A DNA stretch of 64,000 bases from Mactra quadrangularis (taxonomy: Eukaryota > Mollusca > Bivalvia > Venerida > Mactridae), in assembly GCA_025267735.1 (NCBI GenBank), contig CM046304.1, positions 17,732,001-17,796,000 on the forward strand. The letters run 5' to 3'. Every line of letters begins with the position of its first letter. Positions within the stretch are counted from its first letter, which is position 1. The notes below the pieces were generated by a model. That model saw only the letters and a program-made list of their open reading frames with translations, searched no databases and was not told where the DNA came from. Shown here piece after piece: positions 304-63,255 of the stretch. The position numbers and the translations under genes were made by a program.

Positions 304-440
304 TTTTTGGTACTCTAATTCTGTAGGGTTATGTCTTTGTAACCAGTCTTTGATTGGACGATCTTTAAATGATCCAGTAACTCCTGATGAAACCTGAATC
401 TTTCTTAATGTATCAGATTCTGTAACCAGTTCAATAAAAC
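304..440 (-). CDS. PIK3C2: PIK3C2 exon 24 (kinase, last exon in window)
   Basis: 137 bp between TTCCAG and AAA|GTAGGT. Encodes [34 protein letters not shown] and LEYQK. The conserved continuation into the catalytic loop is expected left of base 1. Bases 1-303 are intron with nothing recognisable. Confidence 0.93.
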
Positions 441-18400: not shown

Positions 18401-21400
18401 CACTGGAACTATTATGTAAATAAGCCCAAGGGGGTACAACAACATGTATTAAGTACCAGGGCTTTTTCAGCCTATCTCACGGGGCCGAATATGGGCCCCG
18501 TTCCCAATGCCAAATAAGTACCATTTTTCCCAATTTCAAGTAAGAAATTCCCAAATTTGTTAAATAATTACCTTTGAACAGGATGTCTTTTGCCTTTACA
18601 AAAGAAACCACGAGATTTCATGCAAAAAATAATAAATAATATAGAATTTGCATTGAATGCCTCACTGAACTGTAAGAACAAACTCTTGATAAGCACTGCA
18701 ATACTTTCAGAGACACCATAGCAAAGCATATAAAGGTTAAATGCAGAAAACTTAATGATGAAATTTTCCAGTTGGATTGATTTGTCGATATTTCACTTCC
18801 AAATTGGACTATTTATGGCGTTAAAATTCCCAATTTGGGCAGGGGCCTTTTTCCCAAACCCCCCTGAAAAAGCCCTGAGTACACAAGTAACTATTGGCCC
18901 CTAGGGATCATCAATATTTATATAAAGTACAGGAAGAATAACATACGATGTAACACAATCTTTTTTCATGACTTCTTTGATTTTATCTTTTACCTCAGGA
19001 GCCAAATCAACCATTGATGCCTTTTTCCTGTAAAACAAATCAAGATACAAACTATTATTTAGTTAGGGCCAATTGTGACACAGTTTACAAAATGTTATTA
19101 ATCCCCCCCCCCCCCCGTTCATACTTTGAAAGCAAAATTCCGTTTTTACATAAGGAAGAAACAAGTAAATCTGTGAGCTAATGCTCACTAGTGATACCCC
19201 CGCTGTGAGAAATATGACTACAAACAGGAAGTAGATGAGCAAGGAGCATGAAATCGCTTTACACCACATGGGACTGTGGGATGAAGCAATATGCAAAGTA
19301 TTAGGCTGCTGCATGTTATAGTTGCTGAGAAAACTGCGACGGAAATTTTGTAACGGACGGACGGACAAGGGTAAAACAGTATACCCCCCTCTTCTTCGAA
19401 ACGGGGGTATAAACATGCATTTCTCTTAATAGGAGATTAAGGGCTTATTCCCTAAGGAAATCCCTTTGTAAAGGTTTTTGAAAGTGTTTTTTGTAGCATA
19501 GAAGTTCTACCGAACGGTTTTGCTTCAAAATAGCAATTGCAAAATGGCAACTCTCTCAAACAAAACTTCAGAATTGAATCAAATGAAAAATACTAATCAA
19601 TCATCACCATGCATTTCAATTTCAACTGACCAGACAGAATCTATTCATTAAATATAGAAATTAGTCAGTATTCCTGAAAAAAACCATTCACAATTGGGGC
19701 AGTGATTTTGAATAGCAGAGGTGTTCCAAATGTTTTTGGCAAGCAAGAAAAAAAACTTGCAACATATTGCTAGCTAGTAATTCAGTTTCCTACATTGCAG
19801 CAGACTGTTTCATAGGATATTGCTACATCTACATAGTGATATGAAGCACTATCCTCGATATATAGGCTTCTAGTCTGATATGGGTTCACAAGATGAAATA
19901 AAAACAATCTTATATCAAACATTTAGAAATGTTCTATTTCTTTCATGCTTTTGTTTGTGTTATGAGTTTTCATTTTTCAAGAAATATATCATAACAAGAG
20001 GGTCCTGACAACTCTGGACCTCTCATCTGAAAACTAGATCAGGTAAGCTAACAAGAGCAGTTCACAGACGGTGTGTTTGACTATTTACAACCGCAACAAC
20101 CTGTCAAATTTCCTGCTAGAGTTATGCAACTTGGTATCTGACCTCCAGTAGTAAACCTGTAGACATGTGTGAAGTTTAAAGTGAATCTCTTCTGTAGTTT
20201 CAAAGATATAAAAAAGTTGAACCAGAAAACTTAATCAAGAAATGTTACGCCAACGCCACCACCACTACACAACTGAGTAGGATAGCCCCACTATTCTTTG
20301 AATAGTTGAGTTAAAAATGAATATAAAAACAGTAAAATCTTACCATGATGATAAATTCAATGCTTCAGAAAACACAATCATCTTACCAAAATCTGGTAAA
20401 TTAAACTGAAATATACAAAAATTATCTAAGTAAATAATCACAACAAAATACTCAAAGCATAAAATCAAAGAATTGAAAGACAGAAAGACTTTCCTGCACA
20501 ATGAAACCTTACAAATCTATACTAATGATTACTTCTTACAAAAATTTGGGCCAAGTGTTTATTCTACCCTGTATTACAAGCAAATATAATAAAGATTTTA
20601 TTTTCTTCTTCTTGCCTTACAAAATGTTGAAGTACAATTTTCCACTGCACACTTTGCATACAAATTATGTAGGTTCATTAGTGTAGTTTAATATGATAAT
20701 TATGGTACAAAACTGTAAAACAACTTAAACTTCAAGATATACAATGAACGACCGCAGTATCATTACATTAAACAGATACAGACACTATCAATATATATGT
20801 ATTAATCATCTTATTGCTCTTACACCACAAACTTTTCAACATGGAATTTAAACCTTTGATGTGCTTAGTGTATTAACTGCTTACTGCTTAGTGTATTCCC
20901 GAGATTTGACTACCCCCCTCCTACATGCTTATCAATATAAGTAAACACTTGTCACTAATCAGTGAAACAATGACTGACAGAACTACTTTTATGGCCTAGA
21001 TATTGACTGTGTAGTAAATAAGAGACACATGTATCACTCCGCAGGATAAACTGGTCAGGCATTTTTGTCAATAGTTTTCGATTTGTGGTATAACTTATGC
21101 CTTTCTAACTGCGGTTTAGAATTGAACAGATGTTTAAAGTCAAATGTGCTACACGTACAAGATTAGCATCTTAGCTATCATATGCAGGTGGGTTAAAATT
21201 GAACCAACATTTTAAGTCAAACAAACTGCATGAGTGTTAAGCAATCTTAGCTCAGTATAGAAGTAGGTTGTATTACCTGTAACAAGGCTGAATCATGTTG
21301 TAATGTTGAACAAAATGGTGTCACAGGATCTGCTGCACAATTCATTTGTAACGGTACAAGTTGACTTCCTTGTGATAAATATCTAAAATATAAATATGAG

Positions 21401-24400
21401 AAACTTAATGTTATCATGTGCATATATCATCTATGTACTGTTTTTTTTCTATTGTACCTCTATTCACATGTATCATGTGCTTAGTGGAAATAAACTAAAC
21501 TACATTACCAACCAAGTTAAATTAGGTATATATATATGAGCCAGGCTCTGTGAAAACCGGGCTTAATGACATCGATTATGACGTCGCGAAACGACGTCAT
21601 AAAGTACACACATTTATAGAAACCGAAAGTTGTTTGACGTTGTGTGATTATTGCATTGTTTATACACCGACTAGGCTCTCTTTCATTAATTAAAAAGAAT
21701 TTAAATTATGTTATTTTAGTATGACTGACTATAAGTATCAATGTTTCAAAAAATTATTACTAAATAGCGTAAAAAATAAGGATAATTGACAGTATTGAGT
21801 TGTGTTTTCCATCCGACTTTCGTCAACGTGCCGAGCCATTTTGTGGTGTAGATTCTTTTAAAAGGTGACTTGTCTGTTATTTTCCATATCAAATATTCTG
21901 TATTATTTGTGCTTAAAGAATCGGATTGCTGAGTAGATAAACTATATTTTTTAGAGAATTACAGGCATAATTTCGGCATCATAGGTTTAAAAAGTAGACG
22001 GATAATAGCTTCTTCACGCGTTGCCATCAAATTGTTTACTGGTTACTACGCGTACACGTTCACACCTGTGAACACAGTACACGCTATAATCTTATGTGCG
22101 GACTCGTACAACTCATTTTGAATTTGATTCAGTGCATTTACAAATGTAATTTTGATCGGGAAAATTGGCCACACAAAATTAGAAAGAAGTCTTCCCCTAT
22201 TCTGAACTGAAATGTCCTTGAGATTTTTTAACATTAAATTTCCAGCCTATATTGAGTTAGATATTTTATAAAATCACTTAAGCAAAGACAAAAATGTATA
22301 CACCGTGACGACTTTGCTTAATAATCATAATTAAAATATGGTAATTTGTTATTAAATTAATGTTCAACAGTCTGTTGGCCTCCTTCAGCAGTTCCAGCCG
22401 TGACGTGTGTCAGGTTTGATCCTGCTAGATATTTGTTATTTTTTCATTATTAGACTAAAAAAGCTGGACTTAAATTTTAAGCTACAGTCCCATAAACATA
22501 AAAATAGCCGTGAGGGCACCGTACGAGCACCGTACGGGCACTGTACGGACACCGTACGGACACGTGCGATCAAGCTCCGCAAGGACCCGTACGATACCCG
22601 TACGGACTGTTACGTTTTTATAAGTGTTCGTAAGATTAGCCCATGATATACATATCAGTTTCAAAGTAAAATCGAGAACAAAATCGTGGCCGAGTATGGA
22701 TTAAACTTGCATATCTTCAAGCTATGGTTCCGTGCGGATGTGTTGTTTATTGCCATGTGCGTATCGTCACCAAAATACGCAAGGCTTCCCACGATCTACG
22801 ACTGTTTGCACGTACCGGACCGCAACAAGCCACGATTTTATGGCACTGAGGCATAACATCATTCATAAAATATCATAATTTTACCAAATTGTACCACTTT
22901 CTAATTACCACATATATCTGTTCGATCTTGGAAATCTATTACAAATACCGAGCAAAATAACACTTGTGACTCAATATAAACCGGTTGCAAATAAGACTGC
23001 CTGTATGTTTTCCAAAGGCGTAACATCTTAATATTTTTAAATGAGTATTAGAAAAATAATGTTACCATCTACCCATATATATCGTGGTTAATAAACACTA
23101 AACTGGTATAAGACAAAGATTTGTTTCTTTCTTAAGTACCATTATAACCAACTACGAGTTCATTAGTACGCATCATTTTCGTCATACAAAACTGTAAATA
23201 CTTTCAATGTCGTTAAGAATAATTACAACAGTTTATTGAAAACAAAATGGTAGCAATATTTAGTCATGTGAGAGTACATTTTGTACTAGTGATGTTTTAT
23301 CTTACTTCGTGTTAAACCTGATCTATACATGACTCATGAGTAGGCATAGGCCTTAGAAGTAAATGGCGTTTTGTGTCTGTTGTTTACTGTTTATCACATT
23401 AGTGTGTATCAAAGCGTTGGCATGCAATCTGATTTTTTTGTCATAGAGCATGCAAATTACACACAAGTCATCGTTGGACCACTGTAATAACGTCAAACTT
23501 TAATGTAAGTTGAAATAACCGCTTCTGTGATTTAGAGCCGCATTTCCATATCTATGCTCCGTTTCCTCACTTGTACAAAAACTACAAGTATTAATTAGCA
23601 TTTCCAAAAATGCTTGAAATCGACGTTAGCCGTGTAACACATCTTCTCCTTTGAGTTAATGGATTTAAGTAATTCGTGTCAACGCTTTAAGCCGTGCAAA
23701 GTCTATTCAGAGAATATCGGGATTTGCGTGACCCGTTAACGATATGTAAAACATTAAGACCTTTTTTATTCATTGTACGGAACCTTCTGACTGATAAAGA
23801 TACATCGAATAAACAGGTGCTGTCCAGGACTTGCTCCGACTACGCACGTAAAATCGCATTATTATGGTAGACTCTAGTATTTTTCCTGTCTATTTGGCAT
23901 ATAGTAAATACATTCAATTTTTTAGTTTAAACCGAAATATTCAGGCGAACGATTATCGATATGAATCAGTAGGGCGTTCGCAATGGTGAACGTTAAGTTT
24001 GGTACAGCGAAAAATAATGAGGGGCGAGACTTAAACCTGTCTCAGTGGATACTGGTTACGCCTCTCGGCTGATTGGATATAGATAATCTTCTCCCGTATA
24101 AATAAATTCGCCCGTTAGAAGGGAATTTTCAACAAATAGTAGTTTAAAAAAGAAAACAAACATGTTGCAGCTAGTTTTGCATTTTCTGTGTCTTAAATTA
24201 CAACCTACTTGAAACTGGTACTCATTCCTACTTTGATTATTGTATTTTCTGGTAATACAAACAGGTAACCCGACAAAACATGGCGTCCAGACGAGTCAAT
24301 TCACGCACCCCTAATTTGACAATTTGCCGTCCATTTTATATCATGTCATCTCAAATGCATCTATTTGATTGGCTTAAGGCAACCGGTGTCAACTACAAAA

Positions 24401-27400
24401 TGCTCAAATCTTGTGTATATCGACGTTTCTGGAAACGTCGATATTAACTGCTCGTGCATTTCTTCGGCCAATTGAACTATCAAAGGATCGCCGACTATCA
24501 TTTACAAACTTCAATATTCCTCATTTCTTTGATAATATTGGCTTCCGAAAGTATTGTAGTGTCGGCATTCTGTGATCTTTCAAAGCAAAGGTTAGCAAGT
24601 TCCGTATTACGAAATTTTCTCATTTTAGTTGTACTAGATATTTTAAAAATCTTTTACTTTGATTCTGGACTTAATGTGTTTTAATGTTATAACATGATTA
24701 CACTTCGCGTGTAAACTACGACTATGTCGACATAAAAATATGTTCAGAGAATATTGTATTGATCGTTGTCATTAAACGCAGTTCACATATTTGATATAAG
24801 TTTAACATTATTAAACTCATAATTATAATTTTTTCAAAAATATTTACAGACGTATACATTGCGTAGGGTCTTTTTTGACGATTAAAATTGCTTTTATACA
24901 AATTGGTTCACACGCATGTATAACAAAATAAAAAAAAATATCTAATTTATTTAGCTCTACTCTTTATTATAAGCATATCATGACGTTGACATGTGCAACT
25001 CTTCTCGTGGATAACAACGCGTCAGACGTCATTTTGGATAAATCGCAACGTCGTTGTTGCAAGAAACATCATTTTATGCGTGACATTCATTTAGCTGTAA
25101 AATCGTTAATATTGGTCAGATTTTGAAAAGGTTTTCAGTTTCATGCATCGGAGATGTTGTACTTTCCGAAAATGTAAAAAAGTAAAAATCAAAAATTTTG
25201 TCATTAAGCCCGGTTTTCACAGAGCCTGGCCCATATATAATGAATAGCAGTGTAATGGTTAACCAATATGCCTGTCAATATTGCAATAGGAGTTATGACA
25301 ATTTTTACTGGTTCATTTTTCCTTGAACTGGTTTTAGTAGTTATGTTCCATACTTATTGTTTTTAAATCAGAATCCAAAATTTAAAGGTTTATATAAATC
25401 TTAAGGTATGTTGAAAACTTGAAATAATATTTTTATATTGCCAAAACATGCTTTCTAACATCTAGTCCATTATACACAAATCATTCAACATTTGTTAAGA
25501 GATCATTTTAGCCATTTCCACACGGCTAAAATCACATCAAAAACATACCTCATTGTTTTATAGAGTATAAAAATTTATCCTACTTGTTTGTTGAATTGGG
25601 CAACCTAATTTTACAATTAATGTCAAACTCCGTTGACATAAAATTAATTTGTACAAGTTACATTGTAAATGATTTTAAAAAACATCTTTGTGTTGTCTAA
25701 TCAACTTACCCTCTTCGATTAAATAGTTGTATTGTTACCCCACCCAGTGCTGTTGTCTCTTTCTGTGACTCACCAGCATTAGAAGAAGAACCAGTCTGTG
25801 AATTCTTGATTCCAATAAGAGTGATACACAGTCTAGATTCTCTAGGTAACAAACATAGTTGTAGATCAAATGTTAACCTGAAACAAATTTGAAGATCAAA
25901 TGTTAACCTGAAACAAATTTGAAGATCAAATGTTAACCTGAAACAAATTTGAAGATCAAATGTTAACCTAAAACAAATTTGATGATAAAATGTTAACCTG
26001 AAACAAATTTGAAGATCAAATGTTAAACTTAAAAATAATTTTAAAATCACATTTTAACCTAAAACAAATTTGAAGACCCGATGTTAATGGTTAATCTAAA
26101 ATCAAATTTAAAGATCATATGTTAACCTAAAAACAATTTGAAGATCACATTTTAACCTAAAACAAATTTGAAGACCAAATGTTAATGGTTAATCTAAAAT
26201 CAAATTTAAAGATCAAATGTTAACCTAAAAACAATATAAGGAAATAAAATGTTGATTTAGAAATAATACAAAAATAAAATGTCAACCATAAAATTTATTT
26301 TAAAAAACTGAGACTAAAATTATATGAAATAAATTGTTAACATGAAAAACAAATACATTAATTAGTAGGATAATAACAGTACTTTATTTGATTTTAGATT
26401 TCTTTTATTATCTGGACACATCAATGTTTGTCAAACCAAAATATACTTCATACTCTATCCAAAATGGAATTCAACTATTAAATGTACAATCAATGTGGGT
26501 GTTTTCGTTTTCATTAAATTATGTTCTATATTTATGGCTGCATTGACAAATCTAATACTGTTTGTAATTACAAAACACATTTTGCCATGCAAGGCACGAA
26601 CATAATTTGAATGTTCATATATAAGATGTAAATATGAACTCTTTTTGGATGCTGGTACATCGTTCTATTATCAGTAGTACTCTTAACTATATCTGTGAGT
26701 TTACACTTTGTATTTTACAATTATTGTGTGTCTTTTATATGTTATAGGTTAGCAATAAGAACGGCAGGAGATTTTTTAACTTGGCGTGTCAATCAAACAA
26801 AAGACAAATTTTACTTTCAAAACCAGAAAGAAATGAATATATTAAGAAATATTCTATAATAATCTACATAATAGAACAAATGAGTAATATTAACACTTTT
26901 ATCTACTGAGCCACACATACTCAACAATTATTTTGTTTTCATAAGAAAAAAATTCTTTGAAACAGCACCACAATAACACTGACTTATGTGTTCCTCCTTA
27001 AACGGACCAGCCCAAAATTTAAAGTAGCCTGGTACAACCAATTTTCGATCAGCTAACAGTTAATTGCCGTGAAAGGCATACGTAAGGGACGAACAGCGTC
27101 TGTAAACGCTGAAATACTGTTCAACAACTATTTAGCACTAAAAATATGCAAAAAACACAACTTTACCTTATGTCATGTTTTAAATATCCGTTTTCTACGT
27201 AACTGACCTAATTTTACTAAACCGGAAGTTGCGCAACCTATTTTCGCTCAGATGCTGTTAAAGTATAGTGCGCGTCATAGATAGTGTGACAAGATGTCAT
27301 AAACCATTATCATAGATATTAAACACAATATTTAACTGTCACTAACGAATACTTTTCAAAACCTATTTACAGTGTATCTTAATGATAGTTTTTAAAATTT

Positions 27401-30400
27401 ACATGTGGAGGAAACACAGTTGGGGCACAGGAATGTGTCTTCTCTTCTAATGACCCTTACTGTTCTCAAAAATCGTTATAGTATCCGTTTTGTCATGATA
27501 ATATAGGGTCTTTATGACCCGCTAGTAGGTACATGATTTTCAAAAATATCAAAGAGTAAAACATTTGGTAAACAAGCAAATTCGTTGAATTAATATCCCC
27601 CGCCGAGTACTTGTTTTTACTAACACAACAACTGGAGACATAAGGCTTTATTAATAAATATAAAAATCCATAAAACCATAATAGGGAACATACATAACTC
27701 CATGTTAATAAAAATTATCAGGACATGCCAATGAGATGCAAATTTCTTTTCTGTATTGTTGGTTTCCATAAAATCTTGTTGAAATCAATCCAGCTGTTGC
27801 AAAGAAATAGCAATATTTCTCTATATGAACACTGCACAATTAATCAAGGGCAATAACTCTGAGCTGAAAGGTCTGACCAGAACAAGGCGACAATATGCGC
27901 GTCTCCTCTAGATATTGATGATTCCCATAAAGTTTCGTTGAATTCCAGCCATTAGTTGCAGAGAAATAGCGCAGAAATTTTTTTTCCTCTATTACGCATA
28001 CTGCATAACTAATCAAGGGCCATAACTCTGAGTTAAAGGGTCTGACCCGAACAAGCTGATGATATGCGCATCTCCTCTTGGTATTTAAGGTTCACATAAA
28101 GTTTCGTTGAATTCCAGCCAGAAGTTGCAGAGAAGTAGTGCGGAAACAACTTTTACACTAAATGCATACTACATAACTAATTAAGGGCCATAACTCTGAG
28201 TTAAAGGGTCTGACCGGAACAAGCTGACAATATGCACATCTCCTCTTGGTATTGAAAATTCCCATAAAGTTTCGTTGAATTCCAGCCATTAGTTGCAGAG
28301 AAATAGAGCAGAAACGACTTTTACTCTATATGCATACTACATAACTAATCAAGGGCCATAACTTTGAGTTTAAGGGTCTGACCCGAAAAAAGCTGACGAT
28401 ATGCGCTACTCCTCTTGATATTGATGATTCCCATAAAGTTTCGTTGAATTCCAGCCATTAGTTGCAGAGAACTACTCCGGAAACGACTTTTACTCTATAT
28501 GCATACTACATAACTAATCAAGGGCCATAACTCTGAGTTAAAGGGTCTGATCCAAAAAAAGCTGACCACATGCGCATCTCCTCTTGATATTGATGATTCC
28601 CATAAAGTTTCGTTGAATTCCAGCCAATAATTGCAGAGAACTACTCCGTAAACGACTTTTACTCTATATGCATACTACATAACTAATCAAGGGCCATAAC
28701 TCTAAGTTAAAGGGTCTGATCCGAAAAAAGCTGACCACATGCGCATCTCCTCTTGATATTGATGATTCCCATAAAGTTTCGTTGAATTCCAGCCAGTAGT
28801 TGCAGAGAACTACTCCGGAAACGACTTTTACTCTATATGCATACTACATAACTAATCAAGGGCCATAACTCCGAGTTAAAGGGTCTGATCCAAAAAAAGC
28901 TGACCACATGCGCATCTCCTCTTGATATTGATGATTCCCATTAAGTTTTGTTGAATTCCAGCCAGTAGTTGCAGAGAACTACTCCGGAAACGACTTTTAC
29001 TCTATATGCATACTACATAACTAATCAAGGGCCATAACTCTGAGTTAAAGGGTCTGATCCAAAAAAAGCTGACCACATGCGCATCTCCTCTTGATATTGA
29101 TGATTCCCATAAAGTTTCGTTGAATTCCAGCCATTAGTTGCAGAGAACTACTCCGGAAACGAAATTCGGACGGACGGACGGACAACGCCAAAACTATATC
29201 CCCCTCCCGATTTCATCGGCGGGGGATAATAATATATATAAACTACAACTCCAAATATTTGAAAAAATAAGAAAAGTTCGTCAAGAGCCATATGTCACAA
29301 ATTCTCAACTTTTCCGTGAAGTATACTTTTCCAAATATGGAAAAGTAGGTGGAGCCATATGAAATGATGTTGTCTGTCAGACGACACGCTTCAAACAAAG
29401 AGAAAATGTTGGATGTAATATTTAAAACACATATTTACGATGTAAAATTTTGGGAATAGTGAAAACAACTAAAAATTTGGTGTAAGTAAGTTTTGTTCGT
29501 TTGTTTTTACCAATTGTATCCCCAATTTTCTTTAAAAAAGGTTGAATGATATACCTATGGCGTGTGTAAACAAAACATGTGCGTGACGAAGCGGAAAGGG
29601 CGAGTTTAGCCAGCATAACTAAAATTTTCCAGAGCCGATCGAATATTGGTTGTGATTGAAAATAGGTTGTGTCGGGATACAATAAAACACCATGTTTACA
29701 AAATTGATTGATAAGTACTGATTTGTTAGAAAACTGTATAATATACCATACCATTCATCCCATACAATATGTGGTACAAGACCAGATGTGTTTGTAGAAG
29801 CACATGTTGATGTTGACATCGGTACTAGCTTTCTTTTACCATGATATAATTCACATTCTACTTTAAATTCATCATATCTGCAAGTAGTACAGTAATAAAC
29901 AATTTATGATAATTATGGGATAACTTTACTGGAGCTTTATGTGTAGGACCAGAGGTAGGACACACACTTAGAGGTCCAGAGGTTCTGGTTCAAATCCTAC
30001 ATAGAGCACTACTAATTTCCTTCAGCAAGAAATTTGAAGTTGTTAAACACCATCCAGATATAAATGGGAAGTGAGAGATCACCTGCCTGAAGTTGATTTC
30101 AATGGTCAGGGGATATCGCACAAAATTGTGAAGACTGCTTAACCTGTATTTGGAAGCAATAGGTACTGTGAGGGATCACCTACCTGAATGCGAGTTCAAT
30201 GATCAGGGGTTGTTGTACAAAATTGTATTGTCAGCTAAACATGTATATGGAAGCAGACTGCAAAACTCACTTTAACTTTTTTTCTCATTTTTTCAGGGGG
30301 GGGGGAATTATGCCATAGAAACAAATTGTATAGATTATATCATGGTGGTCAGTCAACCTACTCATTGTTCCTAGAAAAGCAAAATCTCTGGATTTAGGTG

Positions 30401-33400
30401 TTACCCATCTACTAGGCACATACTTTTGTCAGTGACTTACAACTGTCCCACATAATTAAGAATCATTGGTGAAGGGAGAATGGCCGTAGAAATAATTTCA
30501 TGACCAAGCATCACAAAATTATGCATCGCCCAGGAATCAAACCCACAACTCTTTGATCAAGCACTTGTGTGCTACCAACTGAGCTAGCTGAGCAGCTATT
30601 AACTTCTTTTTACTTTAGAGCTACTACATGTACCATGTAGTACATACAATAAATTGAACATTAGAATGTACTTACCTATTGCCCCAGTCTGGAGGTATTC
30701 TATGTACTGAACAAATCTGTACTATAACGTTTTCTGATGTACTTACCTATTACCCCAGTCTGGAGGTATTCTATGTACTGAATAAATCTGTACAATAAAG
30801 TTTTCTGATGTACTTACCTATTACCCCAGTCTGGAGGTATTCTATGTACTGAATAAATCTGTACAATAAAGTTTTCTGATGTACTTACCTATTACCCCAG
30901 TAATGAGGTATTCTATGTACTGAACAAATCTGTACAATAAAGTTTTCTGATGTACTTACCTATTGCACCAGTCTGGAGGTATTCTATGTACTGAATAAAT
31001 CTGTACAATAAAGTTTTCTGATGTACTTACCTATTACCCCAGTCTGGAGGTATTCTATGTACTGAATAAATCTGTACAATAAAGTTTTCTGATGTACTTA
31101 CCTATTACCCCAGTCAGGAGGTATTCTATGTACTGAATAAATCTGTACTATAACGTTTTCTGATGTACTTACCTATTGCACCAGTCTGGAGGTATTCTAT
31201 GTACTGAATAAATCTGTACAATAAAGTTTTCTGATGTACTTACCTATTACCCCAGTCATGAGGTATTCTATGTACTGAACAAATCTGTACAATAAAGTTT
31301 TCTGATGTACTTACCTATTGCACCAGTCTGGAGGTATTCTATGTACTGAATAAATCTGTACAATAAAGTTTTCTGATGTACTTACCTATTACCCCAGTCA
31401 TGAGGTATTCTATGTACTGAACAAATCTGTACAATAAAGTTTTCTGATGTACTTACCTATTGCACCAGTCTGGAGGTATTATATGTACTGAATAAATCTG
31501 TACAATAAAGTTTTCTGATGTACTTACCTATTTCCCCAGTCTGGAGGTATTCTATGTACTGAACAAATCTGTACAATAACGTTTTCTGATGTACTTACCT
31601 ATTACCCCAGTCAGGAGGTATTCTATGTACTGAATAAATCTGTACTATAACGTTTTCTGATGTACTTACCTATTGCACCAGTCTGGAGGTATTCTATGTA
31701 CTGAATAAATCTGTACAATAAAGTTTTCTGATGTACTTACCTATTACCCCAGTCATGATGTATTCTATGTACTGAACAAATCTGTACAATAAAGTTTTCT
31801 GATGTACTTACCTATTGCACCAGTCTGGAGGTATTCTATGTACTGAATAAATCTGTACAATAAAGTTTTCTGATGTACTTACCTATTACCCCAGTCTGGA
31901 GGTATTCTATGTACTGAATAAATCTGTACAATAAAGTTTTCTGATGTACTTACCTATTACCCCAGTCTGGAGGTATTCTATGTACTGAACAAATCTGTAC
32001 AATAAAGTTTTCTGATGTACTTACCTATTGCACCAGTCTGGAGGTATTCTATGTACTGAACAAATCTGTACTATAAAGTTTTCTGATGTACTTACCTATT
32101 ACCCCAGTCTGGAGGTATTCTATGTACTGAATAAATCTGTACTATAAAGTTTTCTGATGTACTTACCTATTACCCAGTCAGGAGGTATTCTATGTACTGA
32201 ATAAATCTGTACTATAAAGTTTTCTGATGTACTTACCTATTACCCCAGTCTGGAGGTATTTTATGTACTGAATAAATCTGTACAATAAAGTTTTCTGATG
32301 TACTTACCTATTACCCCAGTCATGAGGTATTCAATGTACTGAATAAATCTGTACAATAAAGTTTTCTGATGTACTTACCTATTACCCCAGTCATGAGGTA
32401 TTCTATGTACTGAATAAATCTGTACTATAACGTTTTCTGATGTACTTACCTATTACCCCAGTCATGAGGTATTCTATGTACTGAATAAATCTGTACAATA
32501 AAGTTTTCTGATATACTTACCTATTACCCCAGTCATGAGGTATTCTATGTACTGAATAAATCTGTACTATAACGTTTTCTGATGTACTTACCTATTACCC
32601 CAGTCATGAGGTATTCTATGTACTGAACAAATCTGTACAATAAAGTTTTCTGATGTACTTACCTATTGCACCAGTCTGGAGGTATTCTATGTACTGAATA
32701 AATCTGTACAATAAAGTTTTCTGATGTACTTACCTATTACCCCAGTCTGGAGGTATTCTATGTACTGAATAAATCTGTACAATAAAGTTTTCTGATGTAC
32801 TTACCTATTACCCCAGTCTGGAGGTATTCTATGTACTGAATAAATCTGTACAATAAAGTTTTCTGATGTACTTACCTATTACCCCAGTCTGGAGGTATTC
32901 TATGTACTGAATAAATCTGTACTATAAAGTTTTCTGATGTACTTACCTATTGCCCCAGTCATGAGGTATTCTATGTACTGAATAAATCTGTACAATAAAG
33001 TTTTCTGATGTACTTACCTATTACCCCAGTCTGGAGGTATTCTATGTACTGAATAAATCTGTACAATAAAGTTTTCTGATGTACTTACCTATTACCCCAG
33101 TCAGGAGGTATTCTATGTACTGAACAAATCTGTACAATAAAGTTTTCTGATGTACTTACCTATTACCCCAGTCTGGAGGTATTCTATGTACTGAATAAAT
33201 CTGTACAATAAAGTTTTCTGATGTACTTACCTATTACCCCAGTCAGGAGGTATTCTATGTACTGAACAAATCTGTACAATAAAGTTTTCTGATGTACTTA
33301 CCTATTACCCCAGTCTGGAGGTATTCTATGTACTGAACAAATCTGTACAATAAAGTTTTCTGATGTACTTACCTATTACCCCAGTCATGAGGTATTCTAT

Positions 33401-36400
33401 GTACTGAACAAATCTGTACTATAACGTTTTCTGATGTACTTACCTATTACCCCAGTCATGAGGTATTCTATGTACTGAATAAATCTGTACTATAACGTTT
33501 TCTGATGTACTTACCTATTACCCCAGTCATGAGGTATTCTATGTACTGAATAAATCTGTACTATAACGTTTTCTGATGTACTTACCTATTACCCCAGTCA
33601 TGAGGTATTCTATGTACTGAATAAATCTGTACTATAACGTTTTCTGATGTACTTACCTATTACCCCAGTCATGAGGTATTCTATGTACTGAATAAATCTG
33701 TACTATAACGTTTTCTGATGTACTTACCTATTACCCCAGTCATGAGGTATTCTATGTACTGAACAAATCTGTACAATAAAGTTTTCTGATGATCCTGTCA
33801 CATCTTGTGGGTCTAAAATAATACAAATAGAGTCATTAATATCAAAAATAATTTACTAGTCATAACCATTATCAATTTTCTTTTTGGATATATTCTAACA
33901 TACAAGTCAAGTCACTCACATGTGAGGACTCACCAAATTTAACAATTTTGAATTTCTGCAGCTAATTTTAAAATTTGGCAACAAAAAACAGCCCAGATCA
34001 TTTATCTTTGACATATTAAGTTAAGAAGTTGTAATACTAATTATATTGAATAATAATTGATGTCTGTATACTCTCTTTTAGTAATACTCGCAATTAGAGC
34101 TAAGTGAGACTTTGTTATAATAATAAACTCTTGATAACCTGCTTCTATGAAAACATTACATATAATAGTTAAGCATTGGTTAATAATGAAAACTTTCTGA
34201 GTCAGATTTTTATCGTGGAATATATATAGGACGGTTTTCTCTAAGATGCATTGTCTTTGCCAAAGTGTTATGCCAAAAAATCAATTTAGCAAACTGATTT
34301 CACATTGTTGAATAAAAAAACACACCCTTTATTCTTTACAGTGAATAAATCCTTTCCGTTTTAATAGTTTTCAAACTGTTAAGTGCAAATGTGTAGAAAA
34401 AGAATCTCCTTATCATTTTAGCGAAGTTTTTTTTTCAACCAATACTCTAACATTTTAACAGTATGGCATAGGATTTTAAATACCACACAAATAGAATCAG
34501 TCTCCAAAAAAAGGTGAAGGTCAAATAGAGTTTGTCAACATGGGTAAAATACTACCAATAAATAATGCATTATTAAACCTATATTCGCTGCAATAGATCA
34601 GATGTAAAAGAATAAACTGATAACAATTTTTTGAAAAGATAAGCTTTCATTTTGTTACAAAGATATTTTGTTTGGTAAGTACCGCAGAAATAGAAGCAAA
34701 CCTGGTACAAGTAAATATTGTAGGAGGAAGACTAGTTTTGCACAGTGCCATCTATGTACAGGTCGTCCACGTAAACATTGCGTATATAAACATAGCCGGT
34801 TTCATTACACACCAATATTTAGGGGTGAATTACTTTTAAAATTTTATAGTTAAATTTGTTAACACTTATTTTATAAACATATCTTTATATAAAATTTACA
34901 ATGTGCATACACACTATTTAACAAATGTTACATTTACAAATGGCTTGTTTAAATCAGTAAAATAATGTTCATGCATTAGCTTATTCACTTATTAAGTGGG
35001 CAAGTCGATCAGTAGTACGATCAGTAGACGGGCTGAACAATCACAATATAGCCCAAATATTATTGAATTGTTTTGTTCGTTTTTGTTGGGTTTTATGCTG
35101 TTGCAACACATGGTATAGGTCATAAAACAGCAATCAGTCAATCTACTCACTGTTCCTGGAAAGGCTAGATCTCTGGATTTAGCTGTTAACCAACTACTTA
35201 GCACATATTTTCGTCAGTGACTGACAACTGCCTTACATAATTATGAATCATTTGTAGGAGGGAGAATATTATAAAAGTAAAGATTTAATCAAGAATATTT
35301 ACGAAGACTACACAGAGTTTCAAAAATGTAACCAGTTAACAAACTATATCACAGACAATATAAAATGGCATTAAAGAGTGACCATCAGCATGCAACTACT
35401 GACAACGAACATTTAGTGCTTTAATATTTTATGACTCAAGCAAGGAGAAATACGCTAATGACAAAATAGGTGAAGCATTCAATTATTTAAACCCTAAAAA
35501 TACAGATCTTTCCAGGCGAACATAGAAGATCATGCTAATATGACAGGTAGAAAAGTGACCAGTTTCCTAAACGTATCGCTAGCTGGCGCTTTGTCCCCTG
35601 GTACTCTTGATTTGACATCACTTACTTATTAATTTTGGTGTAAAAAGGGTACCACAGCACAAAGTGCTTGATAGAGATTTCCTTAGAAAACTGAACAATG
35701 GTCAAACTATAGACATAATCTAAAGCCTACCTCCAGAAAAAGAATGACCTATACTTTAAGCACAAAATACATAACCATTGGCCATTTCCCTAATTATAAG
35801 ACTAGCTAACACTTCATCCTTGGTACCCTCGATTTGATATCACATACTACATGTAATTCCTTTTGATTTAAGAAGGGTACCAGAGGACAAAATGTCACTT
35901 AGTGATATCCTTAGGAAACTGACCACATGCTTCTTAATTCAACTTGACATTCAAAGTTCAAGTCATTTATTCCAGGAATTCTATCTTAGAAAGACAACTT
36001 TCATTCAATAAAAACAACATGCCATTACAGAAGGATTTACAGAAGACTTAAAGAAAGGAAGCTATGATGAACTATTTCATACATCAAAGTTGAGACAATC
36101 TTACATCCACAATATTTACATAAAGATAACAATCTAGAGCACTACAGTAAAACTATACTCAATATTTACATCTATATATTTTTCCATCATAAAATTTATC
36201 TGAAATAAATCATGTAGTCTAATTCAATATCGAACTGACAGGAGCAACTGGTTAAAGCCACAATTGTATATGAAGATAGTTTCATTTACAGCTGACATGA
36301 AAACAGTCTTAAAAACTTAAAGCTATCAAAAAATAACAAGCATTACATGGGTAGATCCAGGGGGGGGGGTCAGGGGGTTCGGACCCCACCTAGAATTTGG

Positions 36401-39400
36401 AAAATGTACCTGTCCATTAGTGTATTTTTGCCTGTAAGTCATTTTTAAGTAGCATGAAGCAAATTTCTCGGAGCTTAACAAAGATTTGATGGTTACGTAG
36501 TTTTTATTATCAATTTATTGCATTTTTTTCTGCAAATTGTGTATAATGTGGTTGTGGTTCGGACCCCCCTTAGAAAAGTTCGGACCCCCCTAGAAAAGTT
36601 CGGACCCCCCTAGAAAAAAATCCTGGATCCGCCCCTGCATTACTAGTGTTGCCTGCAAGACTGTAGTAAGTGCATTGTGTTAAAGAGCAAGTGACTACAG
36701 TCTTGCAGGCAATCCTTGATTAGAGACATAATGAACATTTCAAACCATTTTTCTCTCTAAGGTTAACTTTGAAAAAGTTTCCATGTCTGAAAAGAGGGTG
36801 TCCTTTAATAAGAATACTCTATATTCATGTTTTTGTTAACACTGACTATACATGTTTTAAAATCGTTTTAAGGCTAAATTATTTAATTTGGAAGAATTTT
36901 TTCCCATCAGTTATTATATGGCGTCCAGCACACCTAACCTAGCTTTTCTTGAACCTTGTCTATTACCAGTGCACACTTTCACAAGGCTGGTTTATACCTT
37001 ATTAATGGAGGAAAACTGACATTATTGTCAAGTTTTCATTGAAGGGTACATGTATAACCTCCCCAGTGGGGTTCAAAACCTGTGCCCCTTCGATACACAA
37101 GATTTTTAAATCCAGGCGCGCTACCAACTGCGCTACCAACCTGTCTCATTCAATACTCAAAAATAAATAAACTCTGAAACTCAACTGATGCCAGAGGCAT
37201 AAAACTTTTTTATTAAGCAAACCATTTCCATGTTCCGAACCAAGATAATTAAAAAAACTAAAATCTAAACAATATAGATATAATCCACTTACCCCATGGT
37301 TGGTCTATTCTTATACCAAGATGAAAATCAGTATGAAATGCTTGACAATATATTCTAACAAGTTGTTTTACAGATTTAACTAATGATTCCAAGGCTTCCT
37401 CTAACTGTGGTACATGTGCTACTCTCAATCTATAATAATAAAAGTAATGTAACAGTTGGGAACAAAGGTCCTGTTATACATGTTAACCAGGCTTTACAAT
37501 CATGTAGGATAACCCCAGCACATTAACGTTAAAAACACCTTCAAGCAGGTGATCTTCACAGTATCAGTTAACACCATGGTTGTGTAAAGCAATTGAAGGT
37601 ATTTTTTTTATTCAAAGATATAAGCTTCATAACGCACCAGTAAACACCATTTCTCATGGTACCAGTACTTTAATGGGTATTTTTAACATTTGAAAACAAA
37701 ATTATATCTGACCAAATAAGGATTATCTTTTGTTTGAAATGTTTAATTATGATCACATCTTAACTGTTGACAACAAAACTTGATTTTTGCCATTCAATGC
37801 TTACTGCATTTTCACTTTGATATCAGTATCGATTCAAAATAACCATATCATTTTATCAGAACTAGTTCAATTTTAGCAGTATCCAACCCTTGGTAGAATA
37901 TACAGAGAATTTAACTTACTTTCCTCTCTGTAAAGTAGCATAACCTCCACCAGTATGTTCTAACGTAGCACTTCTGGATGGTAAACTTTCTTTCATTTGT
38001 TTTAATAGACTTTCAACTCTTATTAAACATTTAGCTATATCTATAGTCTCTATTTTAGATAATATATTACATATAGCTTTAACAGACTGGGACAATGATT
38101 GGAACTGTACACGATCTACTTCATCCTGAAATATCACAAAACCAGTCCATGGAAATTTGAAAATATAAAATACTCTGAAAGAAGAGTTGAATTATCACAA
38201 AACCAGTCAAAGAAATTTTGAAAAATATCAAAACCTGCTTCAATGACAATAAACATCATACAATGACTTTCAGAGAAATTCTAAGACTAACTATTTTCTT
38301 TATAAATAAATAACTAAAATATTAAATAAATCAATCAATTTAAATAAATAATTTTTATTTTGAGTCGGCACAGTAACAAAATAAATGACAAGCTAATATG
38401 AGCTTTTATACTGACTATGTTTATTTTAAACAAATTTATTTGTGCTGGATTTTTAATCAAGTAATTATAACTTAGATTAATCACTTTTGATTCCAATTAC
38501 TGGTCCTCCAATTCTGAGCTAGAAGAATAAAGTTTCTTGCTCAAGGAAACAACTGGTTAGTTGTTGGATAGGATTTGTACCAACGAAGAGCTGGCAATCC
38601 AATGATTCCAAACTATGTTATGAGATAAAAAGTCTGTAATAATATACACACTTTAGACCTATCAGGAAGAAATAGTAATACAAGTTTACCTGTAGAACTA
38701 GATCTGAGACTCTTTCCACTTCTGTATAAAATGTATTCATCAATATTTCTAATGACTCCCTGAAAAAACATGTATATTAATAGAACTTGTCCAACAAAGT
38801 AATTATGAATGGTTCCACCAAAGACATAGTTGTGGATTTCGATAATTTTTCTTCTACATTATTAAATCAACGCTAACCCAACACGTCACAATAACAGAAT
38901 GAACCAACTTAGCCTAATACTAACCAATGGTCATAACTTAGGAACAATTTTATCATAACGACCATTTTCTTCTCAGTTCAAGCTATGGGACAAAAACCTC
39001 AAATATGACATGATTTTGCAATAATCACAAAGGCCTTTGAAGTGGAATTTTATCATACAAAATGACAAATGAGGTTTACAAAACCCTTTAACTAAAATCA
39101 GACATAGTATTACGTAGAATGATAAATCATAACATACCTCGTAACTTCAGTTTCTCTAACATGATCTTGTGGGAAATATAACTGTTGATTATCATCATCA
39201 ATCTACAAAATTAAAACATGAAAAATATTCACTATTCATAGAATTTAAACTAGAATAATTTTTAGTCATATAAAAATGAATCATGAGGGATTTTTCTTCA
39301 TAAATCTTTTATTCACTCAATATATCCTAAGTTAAGGCTAAAGGTGGAACTTTTACACAGACCTGTGATAAAGGCCTTTGGTCGAAATGTTGGATATTTA

Positions 39401-42400
39401 TAGTAAATAAAATGAATAATTTTAACAAATATGTCATAGAGGGTGAGAACTTCTTTAAAGCCACATTTCATCAGATTGCTTTAAATTCAGGTAAAATTTT
39501 ACAGCTCTGTTTTATTTATTGTTACAAATGGTTAAAAACTTATACATTGTATATTATATAAGTATAGATTATGGTAAAATAACAGCATGGGAGAAACTTC
39601 ACAATTTTCAAATCCTGGAGTTCCTGAATTTCATTATTTTGGCAGATTTTAAATATAAGATGAACTCTCATTCAAATATAATGCCCTAAATTTCCGGAAG
39701 AAGTCTTTAAAAGTTAAATCTAAGAATTGGACAAAAGAAAAGGAGAGTGGGAGCAAAATGAATACATTTATCTACTATTTTACAGTCAAAGAATACTGAC
39801 CAATTAAAATCATTAAATCAATATCAAAATCATAGTTGAAATGTACATATGTGTACTTACTGTTCTAAGAAATGGCAATGCAACATCCTGTCGTCTCATG
39901 ATACGAAAACATGGATCTAAATCCATCTTTAAACAATCATGAGTATAACTGTAAGCTGATAGTGGATAGTCACTGTAAATATATATAAAATAGTATTTAA
40001 AACTATTATTTTGAAATAAGATGAAAATTTAATGAGAAATAATATGGAGTTGAAATTCTTAAATCAATAATAAAATGTTGTATAGTTATATTTACAATTA
40101 CTTTACTTTACATTCATGACAAGGTGAAAAATTAAGGAGCAGTGGTCAGGTGGTTGGAGGCTTAGGAATCGAGAGGTCCTGGGTTTAAACCCCATTAAGA
40201 GCACTGCTAATTTCCTTAAGCTAGCAATCTAAATACAGTTGTTTCACTTCAACTAAGTGTAAAGGAGTACTGTGAGGTATCATCTGCCTAAAAGTGATTT
40301 CAATGATCAGGGGTTATTGTACAAACTTGTAAGTCTGCTGAACCTGTCTATGAAAGCAGACTTTAAACTTTAACTTAAACAGAAAGATATAACATTGAAC
40401 TGGCATGCAACCCTGCCTACTTAGCATCTCCTTTACATCCAACAGCCAGATAGGTTGTTATGTTTCTAAAAATTATTCAAGCAAGGGCAGTAACTCTTAC
40501 CTTAACAAATATTCTGATCTATCATTAACTTTCAATATAAAATCTACAGATTTTAGTTCACCCAGTTGTTGCTTGGATACAGATAAACAACTATATAATA
40601 CCTGATCAATCACATGTTCAACTATACAATGTACTGTAACAAGAGAAAGATTATATAACGTAATAATTGTTTTTTGCATAAATATATTAATTAACAAGAG
40701 CAGTCCACTGTTGTCTGGCTCCACTATTCAAGGTCCTCATGTAAACATAATTAATCATTAATATGCAATCATATTGAGATAAGTGAAATTTATAGTGGAT
40801 ACTTTTATTGGTTGATAATCATGTTACTAACTTCTAATTTTGAGAACTGAACTATTAAAGGGCCATTACTCTGTCAATATTCATGCTAGAGTTGTGCAAC
40901 TTAGTATTTGACTTCCAATGATAACCCAGTAAACATGTATTTAGTTTCAACCGAGTCCCCTCAGCAATTCAAAGATATGAAAGATATAGACATGTAGCCT
41001 CTAAAAGCTTAACCAAGAAGTGTTACACAGACACCAACACACAGCTGAATGTGGTAGCCACACTATTATCAAAATAGTCGAGCTAAAAAGTAAACGTATA
41101 ATGGCATTTAATAATAACCCACAAGACTGCATGGATGAAAGTTCTGAGCATTTAAAATCATATAGAGTTTCATAATTCCAATACCTTTAATACTTGAAAA
41201 AAACTCTTTCTTGGGACTGAAAAATGCTCAAACTGTAAGACTAATCATCACCAATGCAGAAATGTTCACCCTTACATGAGAAGATATAGAGGATATTTGT
41301 CAACTTTAGTGTAAGACCGATTTTTATTTCACCGAGTGAGCTCAGAAATCATATACATGTATTCACGAGTGGCATAGCCACGAGTGAAAATGTAATTTCC
41401 AGAGTTCACGAGTTGAAATAAAAAAGATCTTACACCAAGGTTAACAAATATTCTGTTTCTTTCATGCTAAATTTTGCGCTTTATTATAATGTATTTTACA
41501 CAAATTATAACGTGACGTCATTTCATCTCCAATATGACGTCATTTATCTTTAAAGATGACATAATTAACAATGAAAAAATAAGGTTATATTTTCACAACA
41601 ATGAAAATATAAAATTTATATTTTCATCGTTTATTTTCACCGAATAACGTGACGTGTTACCATTAAGCGTGAAAGAAAATGTAGTCTTTACATAAAGTTT
41701 CCACAGCATATTGCTTCAAGCATTGTACAAGGTCAGAGCTCAACATTATTAAAAAGTAGGTAGCCCGATCGGACAAGTTATACACAATACTTGCCCCCAA
41801 AAAATGTAACATGTAACAAGTTGCCTGAACCCAAAAATAGGTCATCAGGGTCAATAGCATGACCTTTAATGTCAAGCTCTGCAAGGTCAAAAGGTCAAGC
41901 AATAAGAAAGAGATATATAACTTACCATCAACAGTAAAGGAGAAAGGTTCAGTATTATATGAGATATATAACTTACCATCAACAGTAAAGGAGAAAGGTT
42001 CAGTATTATATGAGATATATAACTTACCATCAACAGTAAAGGAGAAAGGTTCAGTATTATATGAGATATATAACTTACCATCAACAGTAAAGGAGAAAGG
42101 TTCAGTATTATATGAGATATATAACTTACCATCAACAGTAAAGGAGAAAGGTTCAGTATTATATGAGATATATAACTTACCATCAACAGTAAAGGAGAAT
42201 GGTTCAGTATTATCTGAGATATATAACTTACCATCAACAGTAAAGGAGAATGGTTCAGTATTATATGAGATATATAACTTACCATCAACAGTAAAGGAGA
42301 AAGGTTCAGTATTATATGAGATATATAACTTACCATCAACAGTAAAGGAGAAAGGTTCAGTATTATATGAGATATATAACTTACCATCAACAGTAAAGGA

Positions 42401-45400
42401 GAATGGTTCAGTATTATATGAGATATATAACTTACCATCAACAGTAAAGGAGAAAGGTTCAGTATTATATGAGATATATAACTTACCATCAACAGTAAAG
42501 GAGAATGGTTCAGTATTATATGAGATATATAACTTACCATCAACAGTAAAGGAGAAATGTTCAGTATTATATGAGATATATAACTTCCCATCAACATTAA
42601 AGGAGAATGGTTCAGTATTATATGAGATATATAACTTACCATCAACAGTAAAGGAGAATGGTTCAGTATTATATGAGATATATAACTTACCATCAACAGT
42701 AAAGGAGAAAGGTTCAGTATTATCTGAGATATATAACTTACCATCGACAGTAAAGGAGAAAGGTTCAGTATTATACGATGAATGAACAATAATCTTTACA
42801 GACATAGGGTCTTGTTGTTTAGAACACAATGGACTAACAATAAAACCAAGGTTGGTTCTTTCATCTGTTGATTTATATTCATTCTTCAGCCTAGAGTAGA
42901 AATGTAAGATAATCATTACACTGAGTTTAACATAACTGTTGACAATGTTATGTGTTGAGTACTCAGTTTAAAACTATTGTCTGTCTTGGTCTTGATAAAA
43001 AAAATATATAGCACAATGTGGAAGTAACAATAATAACTTCATTCAGGGATACTGTATAACAGGGATTTGTAACGAAGTTTGTTTTTTTAATTTTCTTGGT
43101 CGTCACTGTCTATAACCGGCTGAAGCAGGCTGTACAAATTATTCAAGAGTTTAAAAACTTGATTTATGTTTTTGTATGTGTCTTCAATGCAACTTGTTAA
43201 TGTTTCTAAAGTTTTTTACAAAAAAAATTATGACCGAAAATATGACTTTAGGTAATGTAAAATGGGGCTAAAATTGGCACATCGGCGGGAAAATGCATTA
43301 TATTGTGAAACAGTCTGTGAGCATAATTTACCTCAAAATCATCTAGAAACACATTTTTCCTAACATTTATGTCAATTTGAATGGTACTGGTACAAAATTT
43401 CATGTGAATATCTTTATTTAAACTTGTTATACTTGTTTTCCGTATGGGCCGAAATAATAGCGACGACAGTGAAATTTGATGAAAATCTATTACAATTACT
43501 TATAGTTACAAATCCCTGTTATATAAAATCCCTGCTTCATTTAATGAGGCAACTTCATTTGGTAAGCCCAGTCTTCCCTTACAGTCTCTACAGTTCCCCC
43601 AAAGTATTCTACACTACAACAAACCTCAGGGAACAGAGGTGGTTTCTAAGTTGAAAGCTTATGTTAGAGATCTGTGGTGCTTTTCACAAAAATTCTTATG
43701 AAAAAAATCATCGTAAGTCAAAAGCAAGAAACCTTGATAATATGCTAATTTTTTTACTTATCAATTCTAAATATTACAGAATTGTGTAGAATAGTGTATA
43801 CCTTTTGAATACCATATCATAGTTTTGCTTATTATCCATCTGACTTTGAAGTGCAAATTATATGAAACTGACTTATGAAGACTTTTTTTCGTAAGAAAAG
43901 CACCACAGGTATATGAAGTAAACTTGAGAATAACTAGTACATACTGTAACCCATCTGATAAAAAATTGAATTATCTTACACCTGAGAAGAGAGCAGTATT
44001 GGTCACATTTCAGCTGACCATTTCTACAATAATATTAACGATGCAACATACAAACAATTGTCCAATCACAGCCTGCGAATAATATGCACCATCAAAAATG
44101 GTCAGAAACCCAATAGAAATTCTTAAATTCTGATGCTATTTGAATTATAGTGTTTCATCTAAATAAAAACTAAGCATTGGTATGTCCACACAAATGTCAT
44201 CTGTAAGTGAACCCATGAGTGATGTCAGAAGATCCTATAACCGCATTTATAGAATTCTGTTCCCAGATTTTGAGCAAGTAAATAGTTTTACAATTTAATA
44301 GAACTTGGAGTTCATACATGAAAAACTGTTTTTAAGTACTGCTAGTAATACAATCAATACATACTCTGCTACCATTTGACAGAATGCATCTGATTCTTCA
44401 TCAATATATAACTTCTTACGTAATCTTTCATGTCCAGTCTGTAATAATAATAATAAAACATGTAAATTCACTATTATCACTTTTTTGTTTGGTTGGGTTT
44501 AACATCATAGCAACACACTGTATAAGTCATATCACCGCAGTCAGTAAACCTACTCTATGTTCATGGAACTGCTAAATCTCTGGATTTATTTGTTATCCAG
44601 CTACCAACTTTATATTTCTTTCAGTTTACAACTGCCCTAAATGGTTTAGAAACAGTGGTAAGACATTATTCCATGACTAAACTCCACAAAAGAGTGCCCT
44701 GACAGGGAATCAAAACCTACCACCTCTCAATCAATAGAATTGTGTGACACCAGCTGAGCTAGCCAGGTAACTCAGATTGGATCAATTTTACTCACAAAAT
44801 CATGTCAAAAACTTGAATATTTCACAAATCTAAACCCACATCTCATCAGAGAGGTAAAATCATTTTGCTGATAATCATTGAATGCTAAAATCTGCTGAAA
44901 ATAACTGATCCCCTAAAGTTAGCAGATCTATGTTAAATAATGTAGAAACTTTTACCTTATCATCAAGTTCATTTGGTTTATCTTTGTTTTTATCATCCAC
45001 TTTAACAGTAACCACATCAGGTTTATCTTCAACAGTTTCTCTACCAAATACACTACCATCATCATCAAATGTTACCCATGCATTTCTATCCATACTGACT
45101 ATATCAGTCTCTTCAGGAGGCTTTGCGAAGAAATAGTTTGACACAGATGATGACGGTGAAGATGCACATATTGACATCGTTCTACCTTTCCGATGAAGAG
45201 GATCAAAATATTCCAATGAAAAATATTCTTTCTCCTCGGACGTCAAAATATTGTCAAATCCTAGTTGAATAAGATCACTACTTTTACGTTGGTGAGTTTT
45301 GTACGCATTGTCGTCAGAGGGGGTCTCTCCAAACTGTTGGTTAAACGAATCTGTCGAGTCACCCCAAACGTCGAAGTCAACGTTAGGCACCAAATTAAAC

Positions 45401-49002: not shown

Positions 49003-63255
<14,253 letters not shown>

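What the first reader, a model, noticed from the sequence alone, without database searches (positions are those of the whole stretch)
25710..42890. Three separate tandem arrays in one gene, each built on a splice junction
Exons 5, 12 and 14 of PIK3C2 each seeded a minisatellite whose unit contains the exon edge and its splice site (51 bp with donor, 71 bp with donor, 30 bp with acceptor). The unit sequences are unrelated, so these look like three independent events in one gene. Repeated expansion at splice junctions suggests either a local mechanism (e.g. short matches near GTAAGT / CAG) or selection for spare splice sites. I know of no described system of this kind.
Basis: partly seen in the sequence, partly recalled or inferred. 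Interest (0 to 1): 0.88.

Follow-up and report, generated by a model that had tools for sequence, protein, structure and literature searches.

The report
Splice-junction minisatellites in bivalve PIK3C2 gene
In one kinase gene of what looks like a bivalve, three short stretches that each straddle an exon-intron border have been copied in tandem up to 44 times; such arrays are already known from lancelets under the name mirages, so this is a striking new case of a known kind and not a new system.

Summary
A minus-strand class II PI3-kinase (PIK3C2) gene spans 48322..304; 25 coding exons give a stop-free 1303-aa frame. A molluscan orthologue aligns through all three junctions with no inserted repeat, so the exon-end copy is the ancestral site and the extra copies lie in the intron. 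[quoted passage not shown] Enrichment at junctions is weak (3 of 10 arrays against 0.7-0.8 expected, P about 0.03, after the fact). I see no sign of selection for spare sites. Best reading: independent short duplications that crossed a junction, tolerated because the extra copies fall in the intron, then grown by unequal exchange. In the 51-bp array, and near the exon in the 30-bp array, alternative sites would keep the frame; in the 71-bp array any later donor gives an immediate stop. No RNA data exist here.

The parts
304..48322 (-). PIK3C2 gene (class II PI3-kinase), 25 coding exons in the window, 3' end beyond the window's left edge
   Evidence: stop-free 1303-aa spliced frame; Pfam PI3K_rbd, PI3K_C2, PI3Ka, PI3_PI4_kinase; 589 of 930 aligned columns identical between P0001 and an earlier 15-exon, 894-aa draft
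42742..42890 (-). exon 5 (ras-binding domain), donor GATG|GTAAGTTA
   Evidence: orthologue aligned without gap at the junction
41910..42775 (-). 51-bp array, 17 units, each with 33 nt of exon 5 end plus 18 nt of intron; 16 of 17 donors intact; in frame and stop-free
33728..33812 (-). exon 13 (start of C2 domain), donor ATAG|GTAAGTAC
   Evidence: no gap at the junction
30666..33791 (-). 71-bp array, 44 units, each with about 64 nt of exon 13 end plus about 7 nt of intron (3-bp CAT ambiguity); 44 of 44 donors intact; read-through meets TAA at once
25710..25877 (-). exon 15 (C2 domain), acceptor TTTGTTTCAG|GTTA
   Evidence: no gap at the junction
25851..26230 (-). 30-bp array, about 12 units, consensus TTTGTTTCAG|GTTAACATTTGATCT.., overlapping the first 27 nt of exon 15; most diverged of the three (78% matches); the five nearest upstream acceptor-like sites are in frame
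36170..36199 (-).
   Evidence: fills the 10-residue gap
38123..38228 (-). diverged two-copy 61-bp duplication that reaches the exon 10 acceptor; flagged as touching the junction by 2 nt, but by eye the likeness ends at the AG

Best explanation
These are three independent mirage-type minisatellites. In each, a short tandem duplication (30, 51 or 71 bp), perhaps helped in two cases by a 3-5 bp sequence match, crossed an exon-intron border. Because the duplicate of [exon end + donor + intron start] lands on the intron side (or, for the acceptor, [intron end + exon start] lands upstream), the original exon and its splice site stay intact and the extra copies behave as intron; selection therefore tolerates them. 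Unequal exchange then grew and homogenised the arrays. Normal mRNA uses the exon-end copy of each junction. Shown here: the anatomy, the orthologous borders without inserts, no visible coding constraint in the copies of the 71-bp array. Inferred: tolerance, growth by unequal exchange, and use of the exon-end site.
For: With the exon-end copies the frame is open, and it aligns without gap to the orthologue P0001 across all three borders ([66 protein letters not shown]). Extra copies lie on the intron side. Exon-derived part of the 71-bp copies: 9 distinct non-synonymous variants, one a stop, against 4 synonymous, each column scored alone on the majority codon (43 of 44 copies; copy 22 with a 1-bp deletion dropped); I tested no neutral ratio. 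Seed matches TGTTT and CAT read from the flanks. The same structures, with RT-PCR suggesting regular splicing, are reported in amphioxus.
Against: No RNA evidence. By a simple matrix from the gene's other sites the authentic exon 15 acceptor scores 7.6 while decoys upstream score up to 11.1, 16 donors of the 51-bp array tie at 11.7, and the 71-bp stretch holds 79 GT sites scoring 4 or more, with a top score of 9.7; clean use of the exon-end site is therefore not obvious. For arrays of at least 4 copies, 3 of 4 at junctions is more than accident predicts (P 0.0012-0.0035). A looser scan flags 4 of 10 in-gene duplications as touching a junction, the fourth by 2 nt.
Confidence: 0.76

Rival explanations
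1. Some array sites are used, giving protein length variants: each further 51-bp donor would add 17 aa (such as [17 protein letters not shown]) to the ras-binding domain, each of the nearest 30-bp acceptors 10 aa ([10 protein letters not shown]) to the C2 domain.
For: The 51-bp array is one open frame with exon 5; the five nearest upstream acceptor-like sites (offsets 30-150) are in frame; human IFI6/6-16 uses downstream repeat units as donors (passage in PMC4526556).
Against: The orthologue has no repeat there; the 71-bp unit breaks the frame and gives TAA at once; two or more of three units being multiples of three has a chance of about 0.26 (my arithmetic); the repeats would sit inside folded domains; no RNA data.
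Confidence: 0.12
2. A junction-directed mechanism (for example stalled transcription or chromatin at splice sites) favours tandem duplication there.
For: 3 of 10 gene arrays of unit 20 bp or more, and 3 of 4 with at least 4 copies, cross a junction; a fourth duplication abuts one; short matches lie close to the splice site in two of three seeds; amphioxus shows several such loci.
Against: P 0.025-0.036 for the larger set, after the fact; by coverage, 3 of 49 junctions in arrays is below the 6.7 expected; the three breakpoints share no motif.
Confidence: 0.07
3. Selection keeps spare splice sites as insurance against mutation.
For: 44 of 44 and 16 of 17 donors intact.
Against: Units match at 95-97%, so unvaried stretches are expected; a spare donor in the 71-bp array would truncate the protein; many other columns do not vary either.
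Confidence: 0.02
4. Assembly artefact.
For: No reads to check; long arrays are error-prone.
Against: Copies differ by shared and private variants; three different arrays, clean flanks and an intact gene.
Confidence: 0.03

Closest known systems
Amphioxus mirages (Adh3, globins BflGb6 and BflGb9, PGBD5, troponin C)
   Same: Minisatellite-like tandem duplications that span an intron-exon border, at 5' or 3' borders, units 10-160 bp, AG/GT kept in many but not all copies.
   Different: A mollusc and not a lancelet; up to 44 copies against 6 in BflGb6. Three in one gene here; Adh3 units of 10-72 bp may mean several per gene there too, but the founding paper was not seen. RT-PCR and length instability were looked at there, not here.
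Human IFI6/6-16 minisatellite (Turri 1995; paper not held, seen only as cited)
   Same: Repeat units carry a splice donor.
   Different: Downstream repeat units are used as donors in mRNA there (as stated in PMC4526556); unknown here.
Human internal tandem repeats at exon-intron boundaries in segmental duplications (PMC2812944, passages)
   Same: Minisatellites, about 30-bp units on average, some at exon edges.
   Different: There in recently duplicated genes, with alternative transcripts and new introns; copy number of this gene was not examined.
Intron gain by tandem genomic duplication (PMC4974935, PMC3443670: search listing and start of abstract only)
   Same: Tandem duplication within a gene bound up with splicing.
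   Different: No new intron recognised here; the arrays lie at borders that also fit the orthologue's protein.

Membership tests
[quoted passage not shown]
mirage minisatellite | authentic border is the exon-end copy, other copies on the intron side | tested here: met
   orthologue alignment; sequences, (by protein homology, no RNA)
mirage minisatellite | unit size in the reported 10-160 bp range | tested here: met
   30, 51, 71 bp
mirage minisatellite | regular splicing not disturbed | not testable with these tools
   no RNA data
mirage minisatellite | length instability between alleles or cells | not testable with these tools
   one assembly, no reads
mirage minisatellite | concerted evolution with border copies left out | tested here: inconclusive
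   the exon copy's 58-nt exon part is identical to copies 16, 33 and 35 of the 71-bp array, which fits exchange or retained ancestry
minisatellite supplying alternative donors (IFI6/6-16 type) | donor in the repeat units | tested here: met
   44 of 44 and 16 of 17; the 30-bp array carries acceptors instead
minisatellite supplying alternative donors (IFI6/6-16 type) | several donors used in mRNA | not testable with these tools
   no RNA data
intron gain by tandem duplication | a new intron at a new position | tested here: inconclusive
   no orthologous gene structure available; the protein alignment gives no hint of it

The most novel reading that the evidence does not exclude
In this lineage splice junctions are hotspots for tandem duplication, and the resulting arrays make length-variable, individually polymorphic isoforms of a signalling kinase's ras-binding and C2 domains through chance choice among tens of equal splice sites.
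Probability: 0.07. Interest if true: 0.85.

Novelty: new member of a known kind. Interest (0 to 1): 0.45.

Why it matters
Each array is a natural competition between many near-equal splice sites; in the 71-bp array only one of 44 donors leaves the reading frame open. If the animal makes normal mRNA, this tests how the spliceosome picks the exon-end site. It also suggests that mirages, described in lancelets, may occur in molluscs too, which a survey of bivalve genomes could settle.

Tried and rejected
Selection for spare donors: set aside for want of any contrast between donor and other columns. Duplication driven by GTAAGT or CAG themselves: not borne out by the breakpoints, though short matches do lie near the splice site in two of three seeds (read by eye, no control run). 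Translated copies in the 71-bp array: set aside (9 non-synonymous variants incl. a stop against 4 synonymous; frame broken). Further mirages at other junctions: a 30-mer scan of 47 of the 49 junctions (2 too near the window's left edge were dropped) found the three arrays at 29-30 of 30 matches, reached by 0.1-0.2% of 1500 intronic controls; the controls left out five large array stretches. The next best were the exon 12 donor (21 of 30, 1.6% of controls) and the exon 10 acceptor (19 of 30, 8.3%), not notable among 47. A looser scan found 17 duplication loci in the window, 10 in the gene, 4 of them flagged at a junction; the fourth is the 61-bp pair at the exon 10 acceptor, which by eye stops at the AG. 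Chance tests dropped TRF rows with units below 20 bp, rows that repeat one array with another period, and rows outside the gene; 10 arrays remained, 9 in the version without the mobile-element block. Papers on earthworm metallothionein and seabream myostatin-2 (passages): the passages seen mention intron minisatellites or duplications, no border-spanning unit. Exchange between the array and the coding copy (codon CAT for H in 16 of the 43 copies counted, the exon copy included; P0001 has P, P0002 has A) could not be told from ancestry. Literature searches answered; I noticed no mollusc case in their listings, several of which were cut to the best 10 or 20, and the library lacks most subscription papers.

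Full report
What is there. The region holds a minus-strand gene. Joining 25 exons with AG/GT borders gives 1303 codons without a stop, with Pfam ras-binding, PI3K C2, PIK and kinase domains. The 894-residue product of an earlier 15-exon draft was searched: 7992 candidates were scored and 4 proteins passed E 0.001. The best, P0001, is named 'phosphatidylinositol 4-phosphate 3-kinase C2 domain-containing subunit beta-like isoform X2 [Ru', the organism being cut off; I take it for Ruditapes, which is inference. It shares 589 of 930 aligned columns (63%). Next are a Pinctada imbricata protein (38%) and two from gastropods. So the host is most likely a bivalve; the species is not known to me.

The arrays. 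TRF finds 51 bp x17 at 41910-42775, 71 bp x44 at 30666-33791 and 30 bp x12 at 25851-26230. On the minus strand the first begins 33 nt before the end of exon 5 and runs into the intron, the second begins 64 nt before the end of exon 13, and the third runs through the intron into the first 27 nt of exon 15. The units therefore carry a copy of the border: GATG|GTAAGTT, AATAG|GTAAGTA and, in most copies, TTTCAG or TTTTAG|GTTAA. Intact donor motifs: 16 of 17 and 44 of 44. The acceptor array is the most diverged (78% matches in TRF against 95-97%).

Which copy is the real border. The orthologue aligns across all three borders with no added residues, so the copy touching the exon is taken as ancestral. 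Reading on from the first copy, the 51-bp array stays open for all 17 copies (a 434-aa frame), the 71-bp array stops at once (AAT AGG TAA; sequence), and in the 30-bp array the five nearest upstream acceptor-like sites are in frame while sites further up are out of frame or meet stops.

More than chance? With seeds placed at random on positions not wholly exonic, 0.69 of 10 arrays of unit 20 bp or more should cross a border; 3 do (P 0.025). With arrays collapsed to one unit, 0.79 of 10 (P 0.036); with a mobile-element block also removed, 0.80 of 9 (P 0.036). For the four arrays with at least four copies P is 0.0012, 0.0019 and 0.0035. On the other side, a looser scan flags a fourth duplication at the exon 10 acceptor. 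A junction preference is thus open, not shown.

How they arose. From the flanks printed, read by eye: the 30-bp unit is the distance between TGTTT in the polypyrimidine tract and TGTTT in the exon; the 71-bp unit is bounded by CAT in exon and intron; the 51-bp unit shows no clear match. This fits ordinary short tandem duplication, though I ran no control for such matches. Copies of the 71-bp array share variants in a mosaic pattern with little trend by distance (mean mismatches 2.6-3.7 for lags 1-8, lowest at lag 2), as in a minisatellite turning over by unequal exchange (inference). Their exon-derived part shows no sign of coding constraint (9 non-synonymous, one a stop, 4 synonymous).

How it works. 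Most likely it does nothing but is put up with: exon-end sites are used and the rest is spliced out. The strain on this view is that the rival sites are as strong or stronger by a simple matrix made from this gene's other sites: the 16 intact donors of the 51-bp array all score 11.7, and acceptors at 26195 and 26097 score 11.1 against 7.6 for the authentic one. The consensus 30-bp unit also holds TTAAC about 25 nt before its AG, which would suit a branch point (recalled consensus, not tested).

What is known. [quoted passage not shown] PMC3902484 (one passage) adds PGBD5 and troponin C. PMC2812944 (passages) reports human repeats at exon-intron borders that change splicing, and PMC4526556 (passages) cites the IFI6/6-16 minisatellite. 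The founding papers are not held. So the kind is known; the host group and the 44 intact donors look new, as far as nine answered searches of an open-access library can tell, and the three in one gene may be.

Noticed in passing
6461-10825: A DIRS-like retroelement (label recalled) in intron 21 on the plus strand: reverse transcriptase (PF00078, frame 7524-8609) and tyrosine recombinase (PF00589, frame 9141-10118); stretches at 10850-11227 and 13610-13969 encode near-identical peptides.
   Followed up: partly
49401-56679: A 7.3-kb element-like block with inverted arms (225 nt, 99% complementary, at the ends) whose inner parts are arrays of a 27-bp unit in opposite orientation.
   Followed up: partly
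27819-29162: A 169-bp x8 tandem array wholly inside intron 14, not on a splice border.
   Followed up: no
   Followed up: yes
17762-17956: Two copies of an 83-bp unit (97% matches) end 29 nt upstream of the exon 19 acceptor without including it.
   Followed up: no
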